Source: a virus. Taken from it: DNA of 28,465 bases. Where the stretch lies: IMG/VR virus record IMGVR_UViG_3300023281_001103, positions 1 to 28,465 of that record; one strand, written 5' to 3'. Position 1 is the first letter of the stretch, and each line of letters opens with the position of its first letter. Made by a program: the position numbers and the translations under genes. The notes below the pieces were generated by a model. That model did no database searches. It saw only the letters and a program-made list of their open reading frames with translations, and was not told the origin of the DNA. Shown in pieces: positions 2 through 28,465 of the stretch.

Positions 2-166
2 AAACCTCACGATTTAATCGTTTACAACGACAGAATTCAAATTGGTTGTTTAAATAACAGTATAAAACATTGGAAGGATAATTATAAAACTATTGGTTTG
101 GAAAACAAAATAAACGATGAAAATATAGAAGAATATGGTGAAATTATAAAAGGAGAAGGATTATGA
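2..166 (+). CDS. C-terminal 54 residues of an unidentified protein (partial)
   Basis: An open frame runs from the left edge of the window to a TGA at 164-166 and encodes the last 54 residues of a protein whose start lies outside the window. The tail is rich in Lys, Asn, Glu and Ile and ends in GEIIKGEGL. Its stop overlaps the polymerase start as ATGA, so the two genes are probably translationally coupled and in one operon. The Shine-Dalgarno sequence of the polymerase (AAAGGAGAAGG) lies inside this gene's last codons. I do not recognise a domain in the visible part. By position it may belong to the replication module, but that is inference. Confidence 0.6.
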   Translation, partial: KPHDLIVYNDRIQIGCLNNSIKHWKDNYKTIGLENKINDENIEEYGEIIKGEGL

Positions 167-1869
167 TTTACATACCATATGATATAGAGATTTACCCTGA
201 TAGATTCATGCTCGGTTTAAAATGGAAAGGTAAAAATATAATTTATGATAAGCTAGAAGATATCAGAAAAGTACCTTTTTTAGATAAAAAATATAAATTT
301 GTAGGATTTAATAATAGACGATATGATCAACCTATCTTAGATAAACTAAACCAAGGATATAATAAAGATAAATTATATAAATTATCAAAATCTATAATTT
401 CAGGAGAAGATGCAATATCTTGGAATGATAATATAATTGACCTCTTAGAAATATGCCCTAAAAGTAACAAATGTTCATTGAAAGAATTTGGCCATAGAAT
501 GGGTTATAAAACATTAGCTAACCTTCCTTATCCTTATGATAAACCCTTGAGTGAAGAAGAATGGGAAGAAGTTAAGAAATACAACATTCATGATTTAAAT
601 ATAACAGAAATGTTGTGGGAGAAACTAAAACCTGAATATGACGCTAGACAGTCTTTAAAAGTATTTTTTGATATAAAAACAGAATTTGGAGGTGCTCCAA
701 ACTTAGCTGCCAAATGCATATTGTCAAAATTAAGTGAAGAAAGTGTAAGTGAAGAATTTAAATTAATTAAAAAAAACAATTTAGTATTAAATGATAACAC
801 CCAAAATCTATACAACAAAACGTTTGACTTCCATTTAACAGATTATTTAAAAGGTAAAAAACCTGAATTGATGGAGATTGTAGATGAAAAAAATATAAAA
901 CGAGCTACTAAATATACAATAAACGATGTAAAAATTAAAATTGGTATAGGAGGTTTACATGGAGATACTATCCCAGGAGTTTATCATAATGTGTATGATT
1001 ATGACGTCACATCTTATTACCCTTCTATAATATTGAATTGTAAACTTGGTTCTGAGAAGTTCAGAGATATATATGAATGGATTTATAATAAAAGGTTAGA
1101 GTTCAAAAAAGAAGGATCTAGATATTCAAACACTTTAAAGCTTATTTTAAACTCATTTTTTGGAAAAACATTAGATAAATATTCTAAAGAGCAAATTTAT
1201 GCTCCTAATATAGGATTAAGTATTTGTTTTCTTGGGCAATTTTATTTAATAGATTTACTTGAGAAATGTGGTGATAATAATTGTTTGAGTGCTAATACAG
1301 ATGGTATTGTGTGCAAAAACGAAATTGACTACCCAATAATTAAAGAATGGGAAAATAGAACAGGTTTTAAATTAAACAAAACTAAATATAAAACATTTAT
1401 TATGCGAGGTTGTAATAGTTATTATGCTGAAACATCAGAGGGGCTCATAAAACGTAAGAAAGATTTCCTAGAACCCATATGGAAAAATACTGTTAAATTT
1501 CCAATAATACAAAAAACTGTAATAGATAATATAACTAAAGGTAAAAGCATTGAACAAAGCATTAAAAATGAAAAAGATATTTACAATTTCACTCACTTTG
1601 TAAAGAGTATAAAAAACGGTAAACTTTTGTTAAATGGTGAAAGCTTAGATGACCCTAAAATAAGATACTATGTTTCAACTGATGGATCTGTTTTGGAGCG
1701 ACAAACTCCAAAACAAAGAGCTAGAATCATAGCGGACTCAAAGATAAATTTGATAATGGATTTAGAATGGAGAGAAGACATAAATTATGATTGGTATATT
1801 GAACAATGTTATAGATTAAGAAAACGGTTAAAAATTAACGATCCTACACAATTAGAGATGGAGGTTTAG
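163..1869 (+). CDS. Family B DNA polymerase with 3'-5' exonuclease, compact phage type
   Basis: This 568-residue protein is a DNA-directed DNA polymerase that probably copies the phage genome. Exonuclease motifs are visible: Exo I YDIE (D7, E9), Exo II FNNRRYD (N50/N51, D55) and Exo III YNIHD (Y140, D144). A GIGGLHG segment (261-267) resembles the YxGG linker. Polymerase motif A is YDVTSYYPS (D281), motif B is KLILNSFFG (K326, N330, G334) and motif C is ANTDG (378-381). Motif C departs from the usual DTDS: the first Asp is Asn378, while the second (D380) is kept. Motifs A and B are only about 45 residues apart, leaving no room for the TPR1 insertion of protein-primed phi29-type enzymes, so I infer nucleic-acid priming. 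The size fits phi29 polymerase (about 570), but the fingers region is short. The ATG follows a strong Shine-Dalgarno sequence and overlaps the upstream stop. Confidence 0.88.
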   Translation: MIYIPYDIEIYPDRFMLGLKWKGKNIIYDKLEDIRKVPFLDKKYKFVGFNNRRYDQPILDKLNQGYNKDKLYKLSKSIISGEDAISWNDNIIDLLEICPKSNKCSLKEFGHRMGYKTLANLPYPYDKPLSEEEWEEVKKYNIHDLNITEMLWEKLKPEYDARQSLKVFFDIKTEFGGAPNLAAKCILSKLSEESVSEEFKLIKKNNLVLNDNTQNLYNKTFDFHLTDYLKGKKPELMEIVDEKNIKRATKYTINDVKIKIGIGGLHGDTIPGVYHNVYDYDVTSYYPSIILNCKLGSEKFRDIYEWIYNKRLEFKKEGSRYSNTLKLILNSFFGKTLDKYSKEQIYAPNIGLSICFLGQFYLIDLLEKCGDNNCLSANTDGIVCKNEIDYPIIKEWENRTGFKLNKTKYKTFIMRGCNSYYAETSEGLIKRKKDFLEPIWKNTVKFPIIQKTVIDNITKGKSIEQSIKNEKDIYNFTHFVKSIKNGKLLLNGESLDDPKIRYYVSTDGSVLERQTPKQRARIIADSKINLIMDLEWREDINYDWYIEQCYRLRKRLKINDPTQLEMEV

Positions 1870-2022
1870 ATGATGATATGGCTTAAAGATATTTCTTTCA
1901 TATTAATGTATATTTGTATTGATATGGTGTTTCTTATAGCATTAATCTGTTTATTATTTACTACAATAAATTTCATAATGATTGAATACCAAGAATGTGT
2001 TCAAAAAAAGGAGGATAACTAA
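1870..2022 (+). CDS. Small single-pass membrane protein, 50 aa
   Basis: The ATG directly follows the polymerase stop codon (TAG-ATG) and has GGAGGT a few bases upstream, so translation is likely coupled. The product has 50 residues. Residues 8-37 or so are almost wholly hydrophobic (Ile, Leu, Phe, Met, Val), enough for one membrane span or a hairpin. The C-terminus is polar and basic (ECVQKKEDN). There is no recognisable family. Its place between a polymerase and a DUF6948-like protein gives no firm role; small phage membrane peptides can be superinfection-exclusion, lysis-related or host-modulating factors. The second in-frame ATG is the next codon, so the exact start makes little difference. 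Confidence 0.6.
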   Translation: MMIWLKDISFILMYICIDMVFLIALICLLFTTINFIMIEYQECVQKKEDN

Positions 2023-2079
2023 ATTTAATAAAATGGCTTAACTTTAGATTTAACTTAAACTTTAAAATAGGAAAATATA

Positions 2080-2502
2080 ATGAATAAAATAGAAACTTTA
2101 ATTGAAAATTTATTAGAAAAAAAATTAACAGAAATGCTTGATGGCAAAGAGATAAAATCTACAAATACAAGTTCAGTTAAATACCCAATCGGTAAACATG
2201 TTCTTCTATCAACTGATAATACAAAGCGTGGAGTTTTTAAAGGAATCTTAAAATCATATGATGAAGATAAAAAAATAGCAGTCTTAGATGAGGCTCAAAT
2301 GGTTATAAGCTGGTCTTCAAACTGTAAAGGTTATTTGGGTCTAAAAAAATACGGACCAGTATCTAGCAAAAACGCATATAGTTCTACTAAAACTAAAGTT
2401 ACAGAAAAATGTGGTGAAGTTATTTTAGAAGGTGTAACTAACATAGGAGAGTGCACAAAAGAGGCAGTTAAGCAGTTTGATACTTTAATTTGGGAAGAAT
2501 AG
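2080..2502 (+). CDS. DUF6948-like phage protein of unknown function
   Basis: The product has 140 residues. The first 20 or so form a probable amphipathic helix (ETLIENLLEKKLTEML). A linker follows, then a compact beta-rich domain from about residue 35. Its pattern is GVFKGIL, then VLDEAQMVISW, a small Gly-rich turn, KCGEVILEG and a C-terminal CTKEAVKQFDTLIW. That order (AGVFaGtL, dAr-i-yW, eiil, ct-eA, W) matches my memory of phage DUF6948 proteins, whose function is unknown. An AGGAA Shine-Dalgarno sequence precedes the ATG. The gene lies downstream of the 50-aa membrane peptide and upstream of a perfect 14-bp stem-loop. The family call comes from pattern memory, not a search. Confidence 0.6.
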   Translation: MNKIETLIENLLEKKLTEMLDGKEIKSTNTSSVKYPIGKHVLLSTDNTKRGVFKGILKSYDEDKKIAVLDEAQMVISWSSNCKGYLGLKKYGPVSSKNAYSSTKTKVTEKCGEVILEGVTNIGECTKEAVKQFDTLIWEE

Positions 2503-2511
2503 GAAAATAAC

Positions 2512-2547
2512 TCAGATCATAAGGTAACTTCTAACCTTATGATCTGA
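2512..2547 (+). repeat. Perfect 14-bp inverted repeat (stem-loop) between two genes
   Basis: Arms 2512-2525 (TCAGATCATAAGGT) and 2534-2547 are exact reverse complements around an 8-nt loop. The structure starts 9 nt after the stop of the DUF6948-like gene. No U-run follows (the next bases are ATTTACACC), so it is not a classic intrinsic terminator. It could stabilise a processed 3' end, act as a factor-dependent terminator, or be a protein-binding palindrome. The ribosome-binding site of the next gene begins about 13 nt after the stem, so it could also affect translation of that gene. Confidence 0.75.
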
Positions 2548-2570
2548 ATTTACACCTTTGAGGTGATGTA

Positions 2571-2699
2571 ATGGAAAATTGGACTGAAGAATTTAAATAT
2601 GGTTACGGTGACGGTTACGGTTACGGTGACTGTGATGCGGGATACAAAGCATGTAAAGAAAATAGAACTTTTTATATAATTGACAAAAAAGGAGTATAA
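2571..2699 (+). CDS. Gly/Tyr/Asp-repeat small protein, 42 aa
   Basis: A 42-residue frame begins with ATG after a good Shine-Dalgarno sequence (GAGGTGAT). It starts MENWTEEFKYGYGDGYGYGD, so residues 10-20 are a tandem GY/GD repeat. A Cys-containing middle (CDAGYKAC) and a polar C-terminus ending IIDKKGV follow. The repeat is encoded by near-identical GGTTACGGTGAC units, suggesting expansion by slippage. The stop lies 4 nt before the next gene's ATG, and that gene's Shine-Dalgarno sequence (AAAGGAG) overlaps the last codons, which fits a real operonic gene. The two Cys residues, C21 and C28, are separated by six residues and might bind metal or form a disulfide, but nothing proves this. No family is recognised. 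Confidence 0.55.
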   Translation: MENWTEEFKYGYGDGYGYGDCDAGYKACKENRTFYIIDKKGV

Positions 2700-2703
2700 C
2701 TAA

Positions 2704-3114
2704 ATGAGGGAATACCAAGAACAATCATCATGGATAAAGTGGGTAAGATTAAATTATCCCAATCTAACAGTATATCATATACCAAATGGTGAGAAAAGAG
2801 ATATTAAAACAGGAGTTAAATTAAAGAACATGGGGGTTTTACCAGGAGTATTTGACTTATATTGCATGGATTATAAATTGTACATCGAGTTCAAAACTGA
2901 AACTGGTAAATTATCAGATGATCAGAAATGGTTTTCTTCAAAAGCTAAAGACACAGGACATGATACAATGGTGTGTTTTGGGTTTGAAGATGGAGTTAAG
3001 AAATTTACGGAGTATGTTTTGAATATAAGTATGAATACTTATAAAAGCATTGAGGTTGGGTTTAAGTATGATACCAAAGATCTCCGATGTCCTTCGGAAG
3101 TAAAGGTAGATTAA
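2704..3114 (+). CDS. VRR-NUC domain nuclease
   Basis: The 136-residue product fits the VRR-NUC branch of the PD-(D/E)XK nucleases, stand-alone versions of which are common in phages and probably act on branched DNA such as Holliday junctions. Visible features are an N-terminal EYQEQSSWIKWVR helix, HIPNGEKR (25-32), a basic KLKNMGVLPGVFD segment with the first catalytic Asp at D51, then YIEFKTETG with E62 and K64 as the E-x-K pair, and LSDDQKWF with Q74. The length is typical for the single-domain form. Start: AAAGGAGTATAACTAA precedes the ATG. It follows the 42-aa peptide with a 4-nt gap. A role in resolving replication or recombination intermediates before packaging is inferred from the family. 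Confidence 0.8.
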   Translation: MREYQEQSSWIKWVRLNYPNLTVYHIPNGEKRDIKTGVKLKNMGVLPGVFDLYCMDYKLYIEFKTETGKLSDDQKWFSSKAKDTGHDTMVCFGFEDGVKKFTEYVLNISMNTYKSIEVGFKYDTKDLRCPSEVKVD

Positions 3115-3115
3115 T

Positions 3116-3148
3116 TTAAATATAAATAGATAAGGAGTATGTTAATGA
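3116..3148 (+). repeat. 33-bp direct repeat, copy 1 (promoter-proximal/RBS block)
   Basis: These 33 bases are identical to 3787-3819. The block holds an A/T-rich leader, the Shine-Dalgarno sequence AAGGAG and the start codon of the downstream gene, so each copy supplies the translation start of the gene after it. The two copies enclose a gene of visibly different base composition, which suggests insertion or duplication by homologous recombination. Confidence 0.9.
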
Positions 3149-3804
3149 ATAATTTTTGGCCTGAGGAAATAGCTAAGCTATGGTACTGGGAGAAGTTCTT
3201 TGGTGACCATGGTCAAGACTGGCAGATCAATTTTGTAAAATATTTTACTGACTCTACCTGGAGACTCTACCTTATTGGGGAGGATGGGGAGGAATCCTTA
3301 TGGTTCTCCTGCGTAGCTGATAGAGTGCCCTTCGTATTTAGCGATGAATCCTTATTTACGTCAATATGTAAACAGTATCAATCGGTTAAATTAATGAGAG
3401 TTAAAAGCGAGCCATTTGAAACAGTCTGGAATAGTGGAGATCAATCTCCTACTGTTACAATTATTCCACTGCCAACACCCTATTCCCAACTTAAATCAGC
3501 GGATATCAGAATTGAACTCCCTTTGTTGCATTGTCGAGAGTGGGGATATGGGGTGGCAGATACCTCAGATATTGGCAGCTTACACAACCCCACAACAGAG
3601 GCTCAGTTTAGAGGCTTACTAGAGTATATTAGTATTAGTTCTTACGACCGTTTTATCAAAAACCATTTTAAGAACACATATCAGTTAAATGAGCAAACAA
3701 GGGTTGATATAAAAGCATATGAACACCGTAGAAATAAGTTAGCCGACCAAGTCAAAAGACAGCAAATAATTTATGATTATGAGAAATTAAATATAAATAG
3801 ATAA
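3145..3804 (+). CDS. Unidentified protein, probable moron or recently acquired gene
   Basis: From the favoured ATG at 3145 the product has 219 residues. An in-frame ATG at 3139 is only 1 nt from AAGGAG and is less likely. No family is recognised. The sequence is rich in Trp and aromatic residues (FWPEEIAKLWYWEKFF near the start, DSTWRLYL), soluble, and ends in a charged helical segment (EHRRNKLADQVKRQQ). Base composition differs from its neighbours: 3241-3300 has 27 of 60 G+C, against 15 of 60 at 3841-3900. The gene lies between exact 33-bp repeats, and the second repeat encodes its last residues (KLNINR). This fits a moron acquired by recombination; such genes often serve host defence or counter-defence, but here that is speculation. 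Confidence 0.65.
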   Translation: MNNFWPEEIAKLWYWEKFFGDHGQDWQINFVKYFTDSTWRLYLIGEDGEESLWFSCVADRVPFVFSDESLFTSICKQYQSVKLMRVKSEPFETVWNSGDQSPTVTIIPLPTPYSQLKSADIRIELPLLHCREWGYGVADTSDIGSLHNPTTEAQFRGLLEYISISSYDRFIKNHFKNTYQLNEQTRVDIKAYEHRRNKLADQVKRQQIIYDYEKLNINR

Positions 3805-3819
3805 GGAGTATGTTAATGA
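3787..3819 (+). repeat. 33-bp direct repeat, copy 2
   Basis: Identical to 3116-3148, 671 bp downstream. This copy encodes the C-terminus and stop of the preceding gene, and provides the Shine-Dalgarno sequence (AAGGAG) and ATG for the next. After the repeat both copies continue with TAATT-like sequence, offset by one base, so the original similarity may have extended a little further. Confidence 0.9.
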
Positions 3820-4175
3820 TAATTGAAGAAGGTTACCGACCTAAAGAGAAATTAAATACAGATAAACCACCTAAATTTCATACAAAAGATGCAAATAATG
3901 TGGAAGTTGAAGTTGAAGAAATTCAAAAAAATAGAGAAATTCTTGCTGAAATATTATCTTATGAAGATTTTTTGAAGGAAAAATTTGCAATAAATGCTGT
4001 AAAGAAATTTTATGATTCCTGTCAAAATAATAATATAGATAGGAAAAATCTAGAAGAAATATTTGAACATATAGAATATATTCTGTCCCGTATTAATGAA
4101 AAAAGACATTCTTATTATGATTTGAAAGAATGGGTTTGTAAAAAACTAGGGTTTGGAAAACCATTCCTTCAATAA
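3816..4175 (+). CDS. Small charged helical protein, unknown function
   Basis: The favoured ATG at 3816 gives 119 residues; the in-frame ATG at 3810 sits too close to AAGGAG. The protein is acidic in its first half (EVEVEEIQKNREILAEIL) and predicted mostly helical, with no signal peptide or membrane segment. The last third is basic and aromatic (RRINEKRHSYYDLKEWVCKK-like region near residues 93-111). No domain is recognised. Its start lies inside the second copy of the 33-bp repeat, the same leader used by the preceding gene. If the preceding gene is an insertion, this one was probably the original partner of that leader, placed directly after the VRR-NUC gene. Confidence 0.6.
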   Translation: MIIEEGYRPKEKLNTDKPPKFHTKDANNVEVEVEEIQKNREILAEILSYEDFLKEKFAINAVKKFYDSCQNNNIDRKNLEEIFEHIEYILSRINEKRHSYYDLKEWVCKKLGFGKPFLQ

Positions 4176-4253
4176 CTAAACTTAGTAGAAAATAAAAAAA
4201 CAAAAATCAAAAATTATCAAATTAAACAGTAAAACTAAAACAGGAGAAAACAA

Positions 4254-4763
4254 ATGAAAAAACTATTAACACTTTTACTATTAGCGCCAACATTAACTTT
4301 AGCTGCAAACGGATTTTTTGTTGGAAGTAGTATTTATACTAATTCTAGCGAATCTAATGTAAGTCTAAAATCACGTCAGCTTGGGTACAATATTAATGTA
4401 GGTTATAATTTCAACGATAAGTTCTATATGAACAACACCATATCAAGACATTCTGACGGACGATATGGGTATGCAATTGATTATGGTGTACATGATAGCT
4501 CAGGATATCTAAGACCATATGCAGATATGTCTTACGACGCTTATGATGATTCTATAGGGTATGATGTAGGTTCAACTATTAACCTAACTAAATGCCTTGT
4601 CCCATACATAGAAATTGATAACTTTCTGGACAAATACAATAAATCTGTAATTTTAGGTGTTCAAGTTAAAATATACAAACACATGTATCTAAAAGCATCT
4701 TATGAGGTTACTAAAGAAACAAAAAGTAACAATTATAAATTGGGGTTGAGTTATATTTTATAG
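4254..4763 (+). CDS. Phage-encoded outer-membrane beta-barrel protein (OmpX/Lom-like)
   Basis: The 169-residue product starts with a clear Sec signal peptide (KK, then a Leu-rich core at 4-10, cleavage near A17/A18). Alternating polar and hydrophobic strands rich in Tyr, Asn and Ser follow: GFFVGSSIYTN, GYNINVGYNF, FYMNNTISR, YGYAIDYG, YLRPYADMSYDAY, VILGVQVKIY, YLKASYEV, YKLGLSYIL. The length and strand count suit an 8-stranded barrel of the OmpX/Ail/Lom type. The terminal residue is Leu, not the usual Phe, but the final strand otherwise resembles a beta-signal. By analogy with lambda Lom it may alter the surface of the infected or lysogenic host, for example receptor masking; that role is inferred. 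Shine-Dalgarno AGGAGA precedes the ATG. Its stop overlaps the convergent holin-like gene by 6 nt. Confidence 0.7.
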   Translation: MKKLLTLLLLAPTLTLAANGFFVGSSIYTNSSESNVSLKSRQLGYNINVGYNFNDKFYMNNTISRHSDGRYGYAIDYGVHDSSGYLRPYADMSYDAYDDSIGYDVGSTINLTKCLVPYIEIDNFLDKYNKSVILGVQVKIYKHMYLKASYEVTKETKSNNYKLGLSYIL

Positions 4764-27725: not shown

Positions 27726-27749
27726 AACTCCTCCTGGATGTATTTTAAC

Positions 27750-27830
27750 ATATCCACAACCTTATATCTAATGCTTTGATTAATATACGATAAGTGTGTG
27801 GTTAAATAAAAACAGGGGTTTTGTGGATAA
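27750..27830. promoter_or_regulatory. Cluster of three DnaA-box-like 9-mers
   Basis: The consensus box TTATCCACA occurs exactly on the minus strand at 27822-27830. One-mismatch versions lie at 27750-27758 (ATATCCACA, plus strand) and 27797-27805 (TTAACCACA, minus strand). A further ATATCCACA lies at 28363-28371 on the minus strand. Four sites in 620 bp of A/T-rich DNA is more than expected by chance for a 9-mer, but the one-mismatch sites are weak alone. Confidence 0.5.
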
Positions 27831-27838
27831 CTTTAGAG

Positions 27839-27869
27839 TAGTGTAGGGTAAAGGGGTCTCCCTACACTA
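27839..27869. repeat. Perfect 10-bp inverted repeat built from the iteron motif
   Basis: TAGTGTAGGG (27839-27848) and CCCTACACTA (27860-27869) flank an 11-nt loop. The arms contain the same CCTACAC heptamer as the iterons further right, in opposite orientation. On the plus strand it is followed by a few T residues (ATTTTAATTTA), so a weak terminator is possible, but a protein-binding dyad fits the shared motif better. Confidence 0.7.
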
Positions 27870-27939
27870 ATTTTAATTTATTGTTTAAAATCAATAAGTT
27901 TAATGTTAGTTTGGGTAGATAACCCATAGTACTAAAGTG

Positions 27940-27968
27940 TTGATTATAAAGCAACTTTAAAATATAAC
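27940..27968 (+). promoter_or_regulatory. Rightward promoter candidate (TTGATT-17-TATAAC)
   Basis: TTGATT at 27940-27945 matches 4 of 6 of the -35 consensus, and TATAAC at 27963-27968 matches 5 of 6 of the -10, with an ideal 17-bp gap. It would start RNA near 27975, just before an iteron (27978), and lead the long untranslated stretch toward 28458. Confidence 0.35.
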
Positions 27969-28000
27969 TGAAAATTAGTGTAGGTAAACGGCTAGAAAAA

Positions 28001-28033
28001 TTGGTTTGGGTTTTTATAGTGGTATACTACTAT
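28001..28033 (+). promoter_or_regulatory. Rightward promoter candidate overlapped by an operator-like dyad
   Basis: TTGGTT (28001-28006) and TATACT (28023-28028) are 16 bp apart. An 18-bp dyad, ATAGTGGTATACTACTAT (28016-28033), with one mismatched pair covers the -10. A repressor bound there would block the promoter. Evidence is only by motif. Confidence 0.3.
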
Positions 28034-28100
28034 GCAATACTTTAAAATATACCCTATTTTAAAACTGTAACTATAAACTACCTACACTACCTACACTATC

Positions 28101-28125
28101 TTAAATAATATATATATATTAATAA
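28101..28125. other. Pure A/T stretch, possible DNA-unwinding element
   Basis: Twenty-five consecutive A/T bases, including a TATATATATATT run, lie between two iteron groups. Such stretches are easily melted and typical next to iterons in replication origins. It is only suggestive here, because the whole region is A/T rich. Confidence 0.4.
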
Positions 28126-28143
28126 CTTACAACAAACCTTACC

Positions 28144-28360
28144 CTACACTGCCCTACACTGGCCTACACACCTCCTACACAAACCTAGTCAATGTCTCAC
28201 AAACTTGTTCAATCTTCTCTCAACTTTAGAATATTACTCCTGTGAATTATCTTTAGAGTATTGCTTTAGAGTTGAGACCAAATTGAACGATTGTTTAAGA
28301 ACAAGACATTTTCCAAAAAATTAGTGTAGGAGGTGTGTAGGCCAGTGTAGGGTAGTGTAG
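28144..28360. repeat. 217-nt imperfect palindrome with 37-bp near-identical arms
   Basis: Outer arms 28144-28180 and 28324-28360 are reverse complements with one mismatch in 37. Inside them, further paired blocks occur: 28191-28197 with 28304-28310, 28207-28213 with 28282-28288, 28218-28225 with 28270-28277, and 28235-28239 with 28256-28260. A 16-nt loop remains at about 28240-28255. Several inner mismatches are G-U compatible, so a transcript could fold as a long hairpin; as DNA it could form a cruciform. It may work as RNA or as an origin structure. Confidence 0.75.
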
Positions 28361-28399
28361 AGTGTGGATATCCTGTGTATATTGGAAAAAAATAATTTG

Positions 28400-28427
28400 T
28401 TGACACCAGATTAAAACATGTTATAGT
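28400..28427 (+). promoter_or_regulatory. Sigma70-type promoter for the rightward gene
   Basis: A perfect TTGACA at 28400-28405 and TATAGT (5 of 6) at 28422-28427 are separated by 16 bp. Transcription would start near 28434, leaving a leader of about 24 nt with Shine-Dalgarno AAAGGAGAAGG before the ATG at 28458. It lies 40 nt beyond the palindrome and next to the iteron group at 28324-28361. Confidence 0.6.
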
Positions 28428-28457
28428 GATTTTGAATTGACACAAAGGAGAAGGATT

Positions 28458-28465
28458 ATGAGTTT
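28458..28465 (+). CDS. Start of a rightward gene (only 8 nt in the window)
   Basis: ATG at 28458 follows AAAGGAGAAGG and a good promoter. Only MS and part of the next codon are visible, so the product cannot be named. The 18 nt around the start (28444-28461) are identical to 149-166 at the polymerase start, which hints at related leaders in one genome or module. Position at the right of the control region suggests the first gene of a rightward early operon. Confidence 0.5.

What the first reader, a model, noticed from the sequence alone, without database searches (positions are those of the whole stretch)
28144..28360. 217-nt imperfect palindrome upstream of the rightward gene
Seen: 37-bp arms with one mismatch, plus four nested paired blocks and a 16-nt loop. 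Some mismatches would be G-U pairs in RNA, hinting at selection on an RNA. It might be a structured transcript, a hairpin used in priming, or a cruciform at an origin. No known family is recognised.
Basis: partly seen in the sequence, partly recalled or inferred. Interest (0 to 1): 0.72.

Follow-up and report, generated by a model that had tools for sequence, protein, structure and literature searches.

The report
Phage replication origin with palindromic iterons
The 217-base palindrome is most likely the core of a phage's DNA replication origin, built from two facing sets of short repeats of the kind that a helicase-type replication starter protein binds; it is a large example of a known sort of origin, not a structured RNA.

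Summary
The palindrome is real and far beyond chance: 43-bp arms, 93% complementary, and a 137-bp core that is itself partly palindromic. The RNA reading is not supported. G-U type mismatches fall equally on both strands, nothing matches Rfam, and the only strong promoter lies downstream of the palindrome.

The arms are two inverted arrays of an 8-bp repeat, CCTACACT, spaced 10-11 bp. Five more copies, an AT tract and a perfect DnaA box share the same 733-bp intergenic region, where GC skew also reverses. In unrelated phages and bacterial genomes the same repeat forms arrays 0-22 bp from the stop codon of D5/VapE-type superfamily-3 (SF3) primase-helicases. Nine of 15 annotated phages with such a gene carry arrays of their own 8-mer within 500 bp 3' of it. 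Published work shows such initiators bind downstream iterons (SaPI Rep, Cch2) or need a downstream stem-loop (pRN1).

Best explanation: a replication origin for an SF3 initiator encoded beyond the contig's right end (confidence 0.72). It is a new member of a known kind, with the strongest palindrome of 16 regions compared. The missing initiator gene is the main gap. Side finding: one-gene vapE elements with iteron inverted repeats, and gene-less derivatives, in Prevotella-type genomes.

The parts
27726..28458 (.). Divergent intergenic region proposed as the replication origin
   Evidence: 12 CCTACAC copies against 0.13 expected; cumulative GC skew minimum at the right end of the window
28141..28183 (+). 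Left arm: four iterons in direct orientation (start 28143, 28153, 28163, 28174)
28321..28363 (-). Right arm: three iterons in inverted orientation (start 28324, 28335, 28345) and a degenerate fourth (28355)
28184..28320 (.). AT-rich core (31% GC), partly palindromic (28195-28239 / 28256-28300, 71%), 16-nt loop
27841..27867 (.). Two further iterons, 27841-27847 (-) and 27861-27867 (+)
27978..27984 (-). Further iteron
28081..28096 (+). Two further iterons 9 bp apart, 28081-28087 and 28090-28096
28100..28127 (.). AT-only stretch with an alternating AT tract; candidate unwinding element (inference)
   Evidence: sequence
27822..27830 (-). Perfect DnaA box TTATCCACA; one-mismatch boxes at 27750, 27797, 28241, 28363 and 28374
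28400..28427 (+). Sigma-70-like promoter TTGACA-16-TATAGT for the rightward gene, downstream of the palindrome
28459..28465 (+). First 7 bases of the rightward gene, cut by the contig end; the initiator gene is predicted in or beyond this operon (inference)

Best explanation
The intergenic region 27726-28458 is the phage's origin of DNA replication and the palindrome is its core. A hexameric SF3 primase-helicase of the D5 / P4-alpha / VapE kind, predicted to be encoded to the right of the contig end, would bind the CCTACACT iterons through its C-terminal DNA-binding domain. The two arrays face each other, so one hexamer could assemble on each arm and the pair could open the AT-rich core and leave in opposite directions, with host DnaA possibly helping. 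The hairpin look comes first of all from the inverted arrays; the partly palindromic core may also form a cruciform that helps opening. Shown here: the anatomy, the iteron identity with loci that carry SF3 genes, and the recurrence of the architecture. Inferred: the initiator itself, its binding, bidirectional firing and any cruciform.
For: Iteron arrays: 12 copies in 733 bp. The same motif in arrays lies 0-22 bp from the stop codon of D5 or VapE genes in L019, L026, L066, L155, L242, L253 and L058. In 11 of the 12 scanned loci that hold an SF3 gene, it lies within 600 bp of the iterons. DUF5906 occurs in 13 of 25 chosen iteron-cluster records against 4 of 25 shuffled-motif records, and two of those four are themselves arrays beside a D5 gene. 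De novo 8-mer arrays lie within 500 bp 3' of the D5 gene in 9 of 15 annotated phages, each with its own 8-mer and mostly in both orientations. Iterons co-vary with the helicase in one-gene vapE elements. Long palindromes recur at other D5 loci. Literature: PMC7581432 and PMC4234260. DnaA boxes cluster here and cumulative GC skew reaches its minimum here.
Against: No SF3 helicase is in the window (DUF5906, D5_N and VapE all negative); the contig ends 7 bases into the next gene. The palindrome does not sit at the 3' end of an initiator gene, unlike most relatives (L031 and L054, with arrays at or near the D5 5' end, are exceptions). Two sequenced phages with a related polymerase have no DUF5906, D5_N or VapE hit, and the closest terminase relative in the phage collection has no D5_N or VapE hit. 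Most CCTACAC arrays found have no SF3 gene beside them within the fetched DNA (53 of 60 loci); many are gene-less chromosomal palindromes or lie on short contigs. GC skew is confounded by gene orientation.
Confidence: 0.72

Rival explanations
1. An operator or packaging array: a phage regulator binds the repeats to control the divergent promoters, or the small terminase subunit binds them to start packaging.
For: Position between divergent transcription units and directly upstream of the terminase genes; promoter-like sites on both strands.
Against: The same repeat stands beside SF3 helicase genes in unrelated phages, not beside terminases or one repressor family.
Confidence: 0.12
2. An inserted non-autonomous (MITE-like) copy of a vapE-type element, like the gene-less CCTACAC palindromes of Bacteroidales chromosomes.
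For: Near-identical inverted arms with the same repeat, as in L288, L286 and L300.
Against: The five extra iterons lie outside the palindrome on the left only and are not mirrored on the right; the terminal sequences of those elements are absent. Origin features extend over the whole intergenic region.
Confidence: 0.08
3. A structured RNA, or a long hairpin transcript acting as a regulator or primer.
For: Very stable predicted RNA fold on both strands.
Against: Any long palindrome folds this way. G-U type mismatches are balanced between strands; no Rfam match; the main promoter is downstream.
Confidence: 0.05
4. A telomere or protelomerase site, or an assembly fold-back at the contig end.
For: A long palindrome 102 bp from the end of a linear contig.
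Against: The centre is an unpaired 16-nt loop with inner arms only 71% alike, not a perfect central palindrome; mismatches and indels between the arms exclude a simple fold-back artefact.
Confidence: 0.03

Closest known systems
SaPI and SCCmec initiators (SaPI Rep, Cch2) with iterons directly downstream of the helicase gene (PMC7581432)
   Same: Short repeats in an intergenic region; an initiator helicase whose C-terminal domain binds them, thought to act as two hexamers
   Different: The window has long inverted arms and no initiator gene next to it on the available sequence
Satellite phage P4 origin with alpha protein (mentioned in PMC4234260; details from general knowledge)
   Same: Short repeats bound by a primase-helicase through its C-terminal winged-helix domain
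   Different: Different repeat sequence; the window has a long palindrome with a partly palindromic core
pRN1 and phage BIP-1 stem-loop origins (PMC4234260)
   Same: A large stem-loop associated with an SF3 replication protein, required for replication in pRN1
   Different: pRN1 is described as lacking iterons. In a BPP1-like phage (L409), inverted TTGCCTCG pairs frame a palindrome with 48-nt arms, so stem-loop and iterons can coincide
D5-associated iteron regions of L026, L066 and L242 (viral contigs and an Alphaproteobacterial contig)
   Same: Same 8-bp repeat, inverted arrays around a core, beside a D5 gene
   Different: Shorter arms; arrays at the 3' end of the helicase gene; inner arrays point outward rather than inward

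Membership tests
SF3 (D5/P4-alpha/SaPI-Rep type) iteron origin | Tandem short iterons at about 9-12 bp spacing in an intergenic region | tested here: met
SF3 (D5/P4-alpha/SaPI-Rep type) iteron origin | Iterons in both orientations around an AT-rich core | tested here: met
SF3 (D5/P4-alpha/SaPI-Rep type) iteron origin | Iteron shared with loci that encode an SF3 initiator with a C-terminal Pox_D5 domain | tested here: met
   Pox_D5 found in L019, L026, L054, L242 and L253
SF3 (D5/P4-alpha/SaPI-Rep type) iteron origin | Initiator gene next to the iterons | tested here: inconclusive
   none in the window, but the contig ends 7 bases into the next gene
SF3 (D5/P4-alpha/SaPI-Rep type) iteron origin | Drives replication and is bound by the initiator | not testable with these tools
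   needs bench work
Structured RNA family | Match to a described Rfam family | tested here: not met
Structured RNA family | Compensatory changes or strand-specific G-U pairs | tested here: inconclusive
   no homologue for covariation; G-U type mismatches balanced between strands
vapE MITE-like element | Mirror-symmetric terminal arrays, including outer iterons | tested here: not met
   iterons outside the palindrome lie on the left only
Protelomerase (telRL-type) site | Perfect central palindrome | tested here: not met
   16-nt unpaired centre, inner arms 71%

The most novel reading that the evidence does not exclude
Inverted iteron arrays with a palindromic core are a general origin code of SF3 initiators, shared by phages, satellites and one-gene vapE elements. 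The extruded DNA hairpin is itself part of what the initiator recognises, which would unify 'iteron' and 'stem-loop' origins; the window would be the clearest natural example.
Probability: 0.2. Interest if true: 0.7.

Novelty: new member of a known kind. Interest (0 to 1): 0.45.

Why it matters
It turns an unexplained hairpin in an environmental phage contig into a predicted origin with a named class of initiator. It suggests a simple rule for finding such origins: look for inverted arrays of one 8-mer near D5 or VapE genes. It also offers one explanation for published stem-loop origins, since inverted iterons make stem-loops. The matching arrays in Bacteroidales lead to one-gene elements, built from an SF3 helicase and iteron terminal repeats, for which I found no description.

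Tried and rejected
RNA reading: both strands folded, Rfam searched, mismatch classes counted; no support. Direct homologues: terminase, polymerase and portal protein queries gave only distant relatives and the capsid query nothing; the 17-bp arm pattern hit two apparently unrelated loci. A text search for CCTACACT returned only unrelated papers among those listed. An alignment of six D5 proteins was too diverse for the search for related loci. The shuffled control motif CACATCC was not a clean negative: it also hit D5 loci that use that repeat (L361, L376). Some window ORFs between 4758 and 20950 were not scanned against families.

Full report
Observation. The palindrome is in the sequence at the stated place and is far beyond chance. 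The outer arms are 28141-28183 and 28321-28363 (43 nt, 93% complementary); the inner arms 28195-28239 and 28256-28300 are 71% complementary around a 16-nt loop. The RNA fold z-scores are -15.6 and -12.7 on the two strands, the core alone -4.8 and -4.0, and the best inverted repeat scores 35.5 against at most 12 in 12 shuffles.

Surroundings. The window is a 28.5-kb linear IMG/VR fragment of a tailed phage with a contractile tail. Terminase, portal, head, sheath and baseplate genes run leftward (4758-27725), and a DNA polymerase and small genes run rightward (163-4763). The palindrome lies in the divergent 733-bp region between the packaging genes and a rightward gene cut off by the contig end. 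Cumulative GC skew peaks near 4 kb and falls through the structural genes to its minimum at the right end of the window; gene orientation confounds this.

What the arms are. The arms consist of an 8-bp repeat, CCTACACT (core CCTACAC), at 10-11 bp spacing: four on the left, three plus a degenerate one on the right. Five more copies lie to the left of the palindrome. The region holds 12 copies of CCTACAC against 0.13 expected, and the rest of the window 3. A perfect DnaA box (27822) and several near matches lie in the same region, as does an alternating AT tract.

Not an RNA. Mismatches that would be G-U pairs are balanced between strands: 1+4 on the + strand, 1+3 on the - strand, with 7 transversion mismatches. 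There is no Rfam match, and the best promoter, TTGACA-16-TATAGT at 28400-28427, starts downstream of the palindrome. Covariation could not be tested because no close relative was found.

Same iterons elsewhere. A scan of viral contigs for two adjacent CCTACACT repeats gave 98 stretches, a good part of them probably chance. In many of the rest, clusters in both orientations stand beside genes of the D5/SF3 type: DUF5906, D5_N, Pox_D5 or VapE. In L019, L026, L066, L155, L242, L253 and L058 the iterons begin 0-22 bp from the stop codon of that gene. In 11 of 12 scanned loci that hold an SF3 gene, it lies within 600 bp of the iterons. DUF5906 is present in 13 of 25 chosen iteron-cluster records against 4 of 25 records found with a shuffled motif; two of those four are again arrays beside a D5 gene, using the shuffled repeat (L361, L376).

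General architecture. Among 15 annotated phages with a D5-type primase, an unbiased 8-mer search finds arrays within 500 bp of the gene's 3' end in nine: Listeria PSA AAGGTGGA, Gordonia GMA4 CGGGTGCC, Arthrobacter PeggyLeg03 AGTGACAT, Mycobacterium Milly ATCTGTCC, Bacillus phi105 AAGTAACA, Lacticaseibacillus C4.1 GTGACGGA, a BPP1-like Bordetella phage CGAGGCAA, Acinetobacter 4316 ACGTCACT and, weakly, Arthrobacter Liebe ACGTCGCC. The repeat differs between phages, and several (not all) carry a GTG/CAC core. Inverted repeats above shuffle levels occur in most of the regions compared, and in L409 (48-nt arms), L117 (39) and L054 (66, imperfect) the palindrome extends into the core. The window has the highest score of the 16 regions.

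Literature. SaPI Rep recognises, through its C-terminal domain, an origin of short iterons directly downstream of its gene; Cch2 binds direct repeats downstream of its gene and may act as two hexamers (PMC7581432). In plasmid pRN1 a 100-nt stem-loop downstream of an SF3 replication protein is required for replication, and a similar stem-loop was reported in phage BIP-1 (PMC4234260). The BPP1-like palindrome framed by TTGCCTCG repeats suggests that, at least there, iterons and stem-loop are one object; whether it is the published BIP-1 stem-loop was not checked.

Mechanism. Best supported: an origin on which an SF3 primase-helicase assembles, perhaps one hexamer per arm, and opens the AT-rich core. 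Shown: anatomy, shared iterons, recurring layout. Inferred: initiator identity, binding, bidirectional firing, cruciform. The main weakness is that the initiator is not on the contig, which ends 7 bases into the next gene. Nor does the palindrome sit at the 3' end of an initiator gene, as it does in most relatives; L031 and L054, with arrays at or near the D5 5' end, are the exceptions. Two sequenced phages with a related polymerase gave no DUF5906, D5_N or VapE hit, though one distant terminase relative does carry a D5_N gene (G059), without a detectable array in the DNA fetched.

Side finding. Prevotella-type genomes hold elements of about 1.5 kb in which inverted repeats made of iteron arrays (about 120-130 bp in L415 and L423, about 42 bp aligned in L416) flank one vapE-type helicase gene. 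The iteron changes with the protein: CCCTACAC, CCCTTCAC (79% protein identity to L415), ACACTTCA (66%), ACCTATCA (53%), AACCTCA (40%) and TCTACAC (32%). Gene-less palindromes with the same layout are scattered in the same genomes (L300 against L415). This supports helicase-iteron recognition and may be an undescribed kind of element; target-site duplications and movement were not shown, and two paper searches found no description.

Verdict. A new member of a known kind of origin, with an unusually strong palindrome. Interest 0.45.

Noticed in passing
L415 1578-3070; L423 1524-3006; L416 1771-3259; also L430, L434, L446, L454: Small elements with iteron-array inverted repeats flanking a single vapE-type SF3 helicase gene in Prevotella-type genomes; the iteron sequence changes with the protein. 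No other gene lies inside L415, L416 or L423. Possibly a new kind of one-gene element.
   Followed up: partly
L300 4236-4506; L310 375-983; L338 4671-5146; L261 2826-3244; L286 240-496: Gene-less palindromes of CCTACAC arrays scattered in Bacteroidales chromosomes (up to 22 array matches per genome), with a layout like the vapE elements; probably MITE-like derivatives.
   Followed up: partly
L026, L066, L058, L035, L253, L117, L361, L376; window 28107-28123: Alternating purine-pyrimidine tracts, (TA)n or (CG)n/(CA)n, recur inside or next to D5-associated iteron regions.
   Followed up: no
L361 12600-12900; L376 6950-7300: The shuffled control repeat CACATCC turned out to be the iteron of other D5 phages, with arrays beside DUF5906 genes.
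   Followed up: partly
L275 6694-6794; L321 4980-5071; L242 4165-4256: Similar CCTACAC palindromes (triplets 57 bp apart) in marine Alphaproteobacteria (Planktomarina, Amylibacter, one unnamed); only L242 has a D5 gene beside it in the fetched DNA.
   Followed up: no
window 4254-4763: An ORF weakly matching an outer-membrane beta-barrel domain (just below the Pfam cut-off) at the end of the rightward operon of a phage.
   Followed up: no
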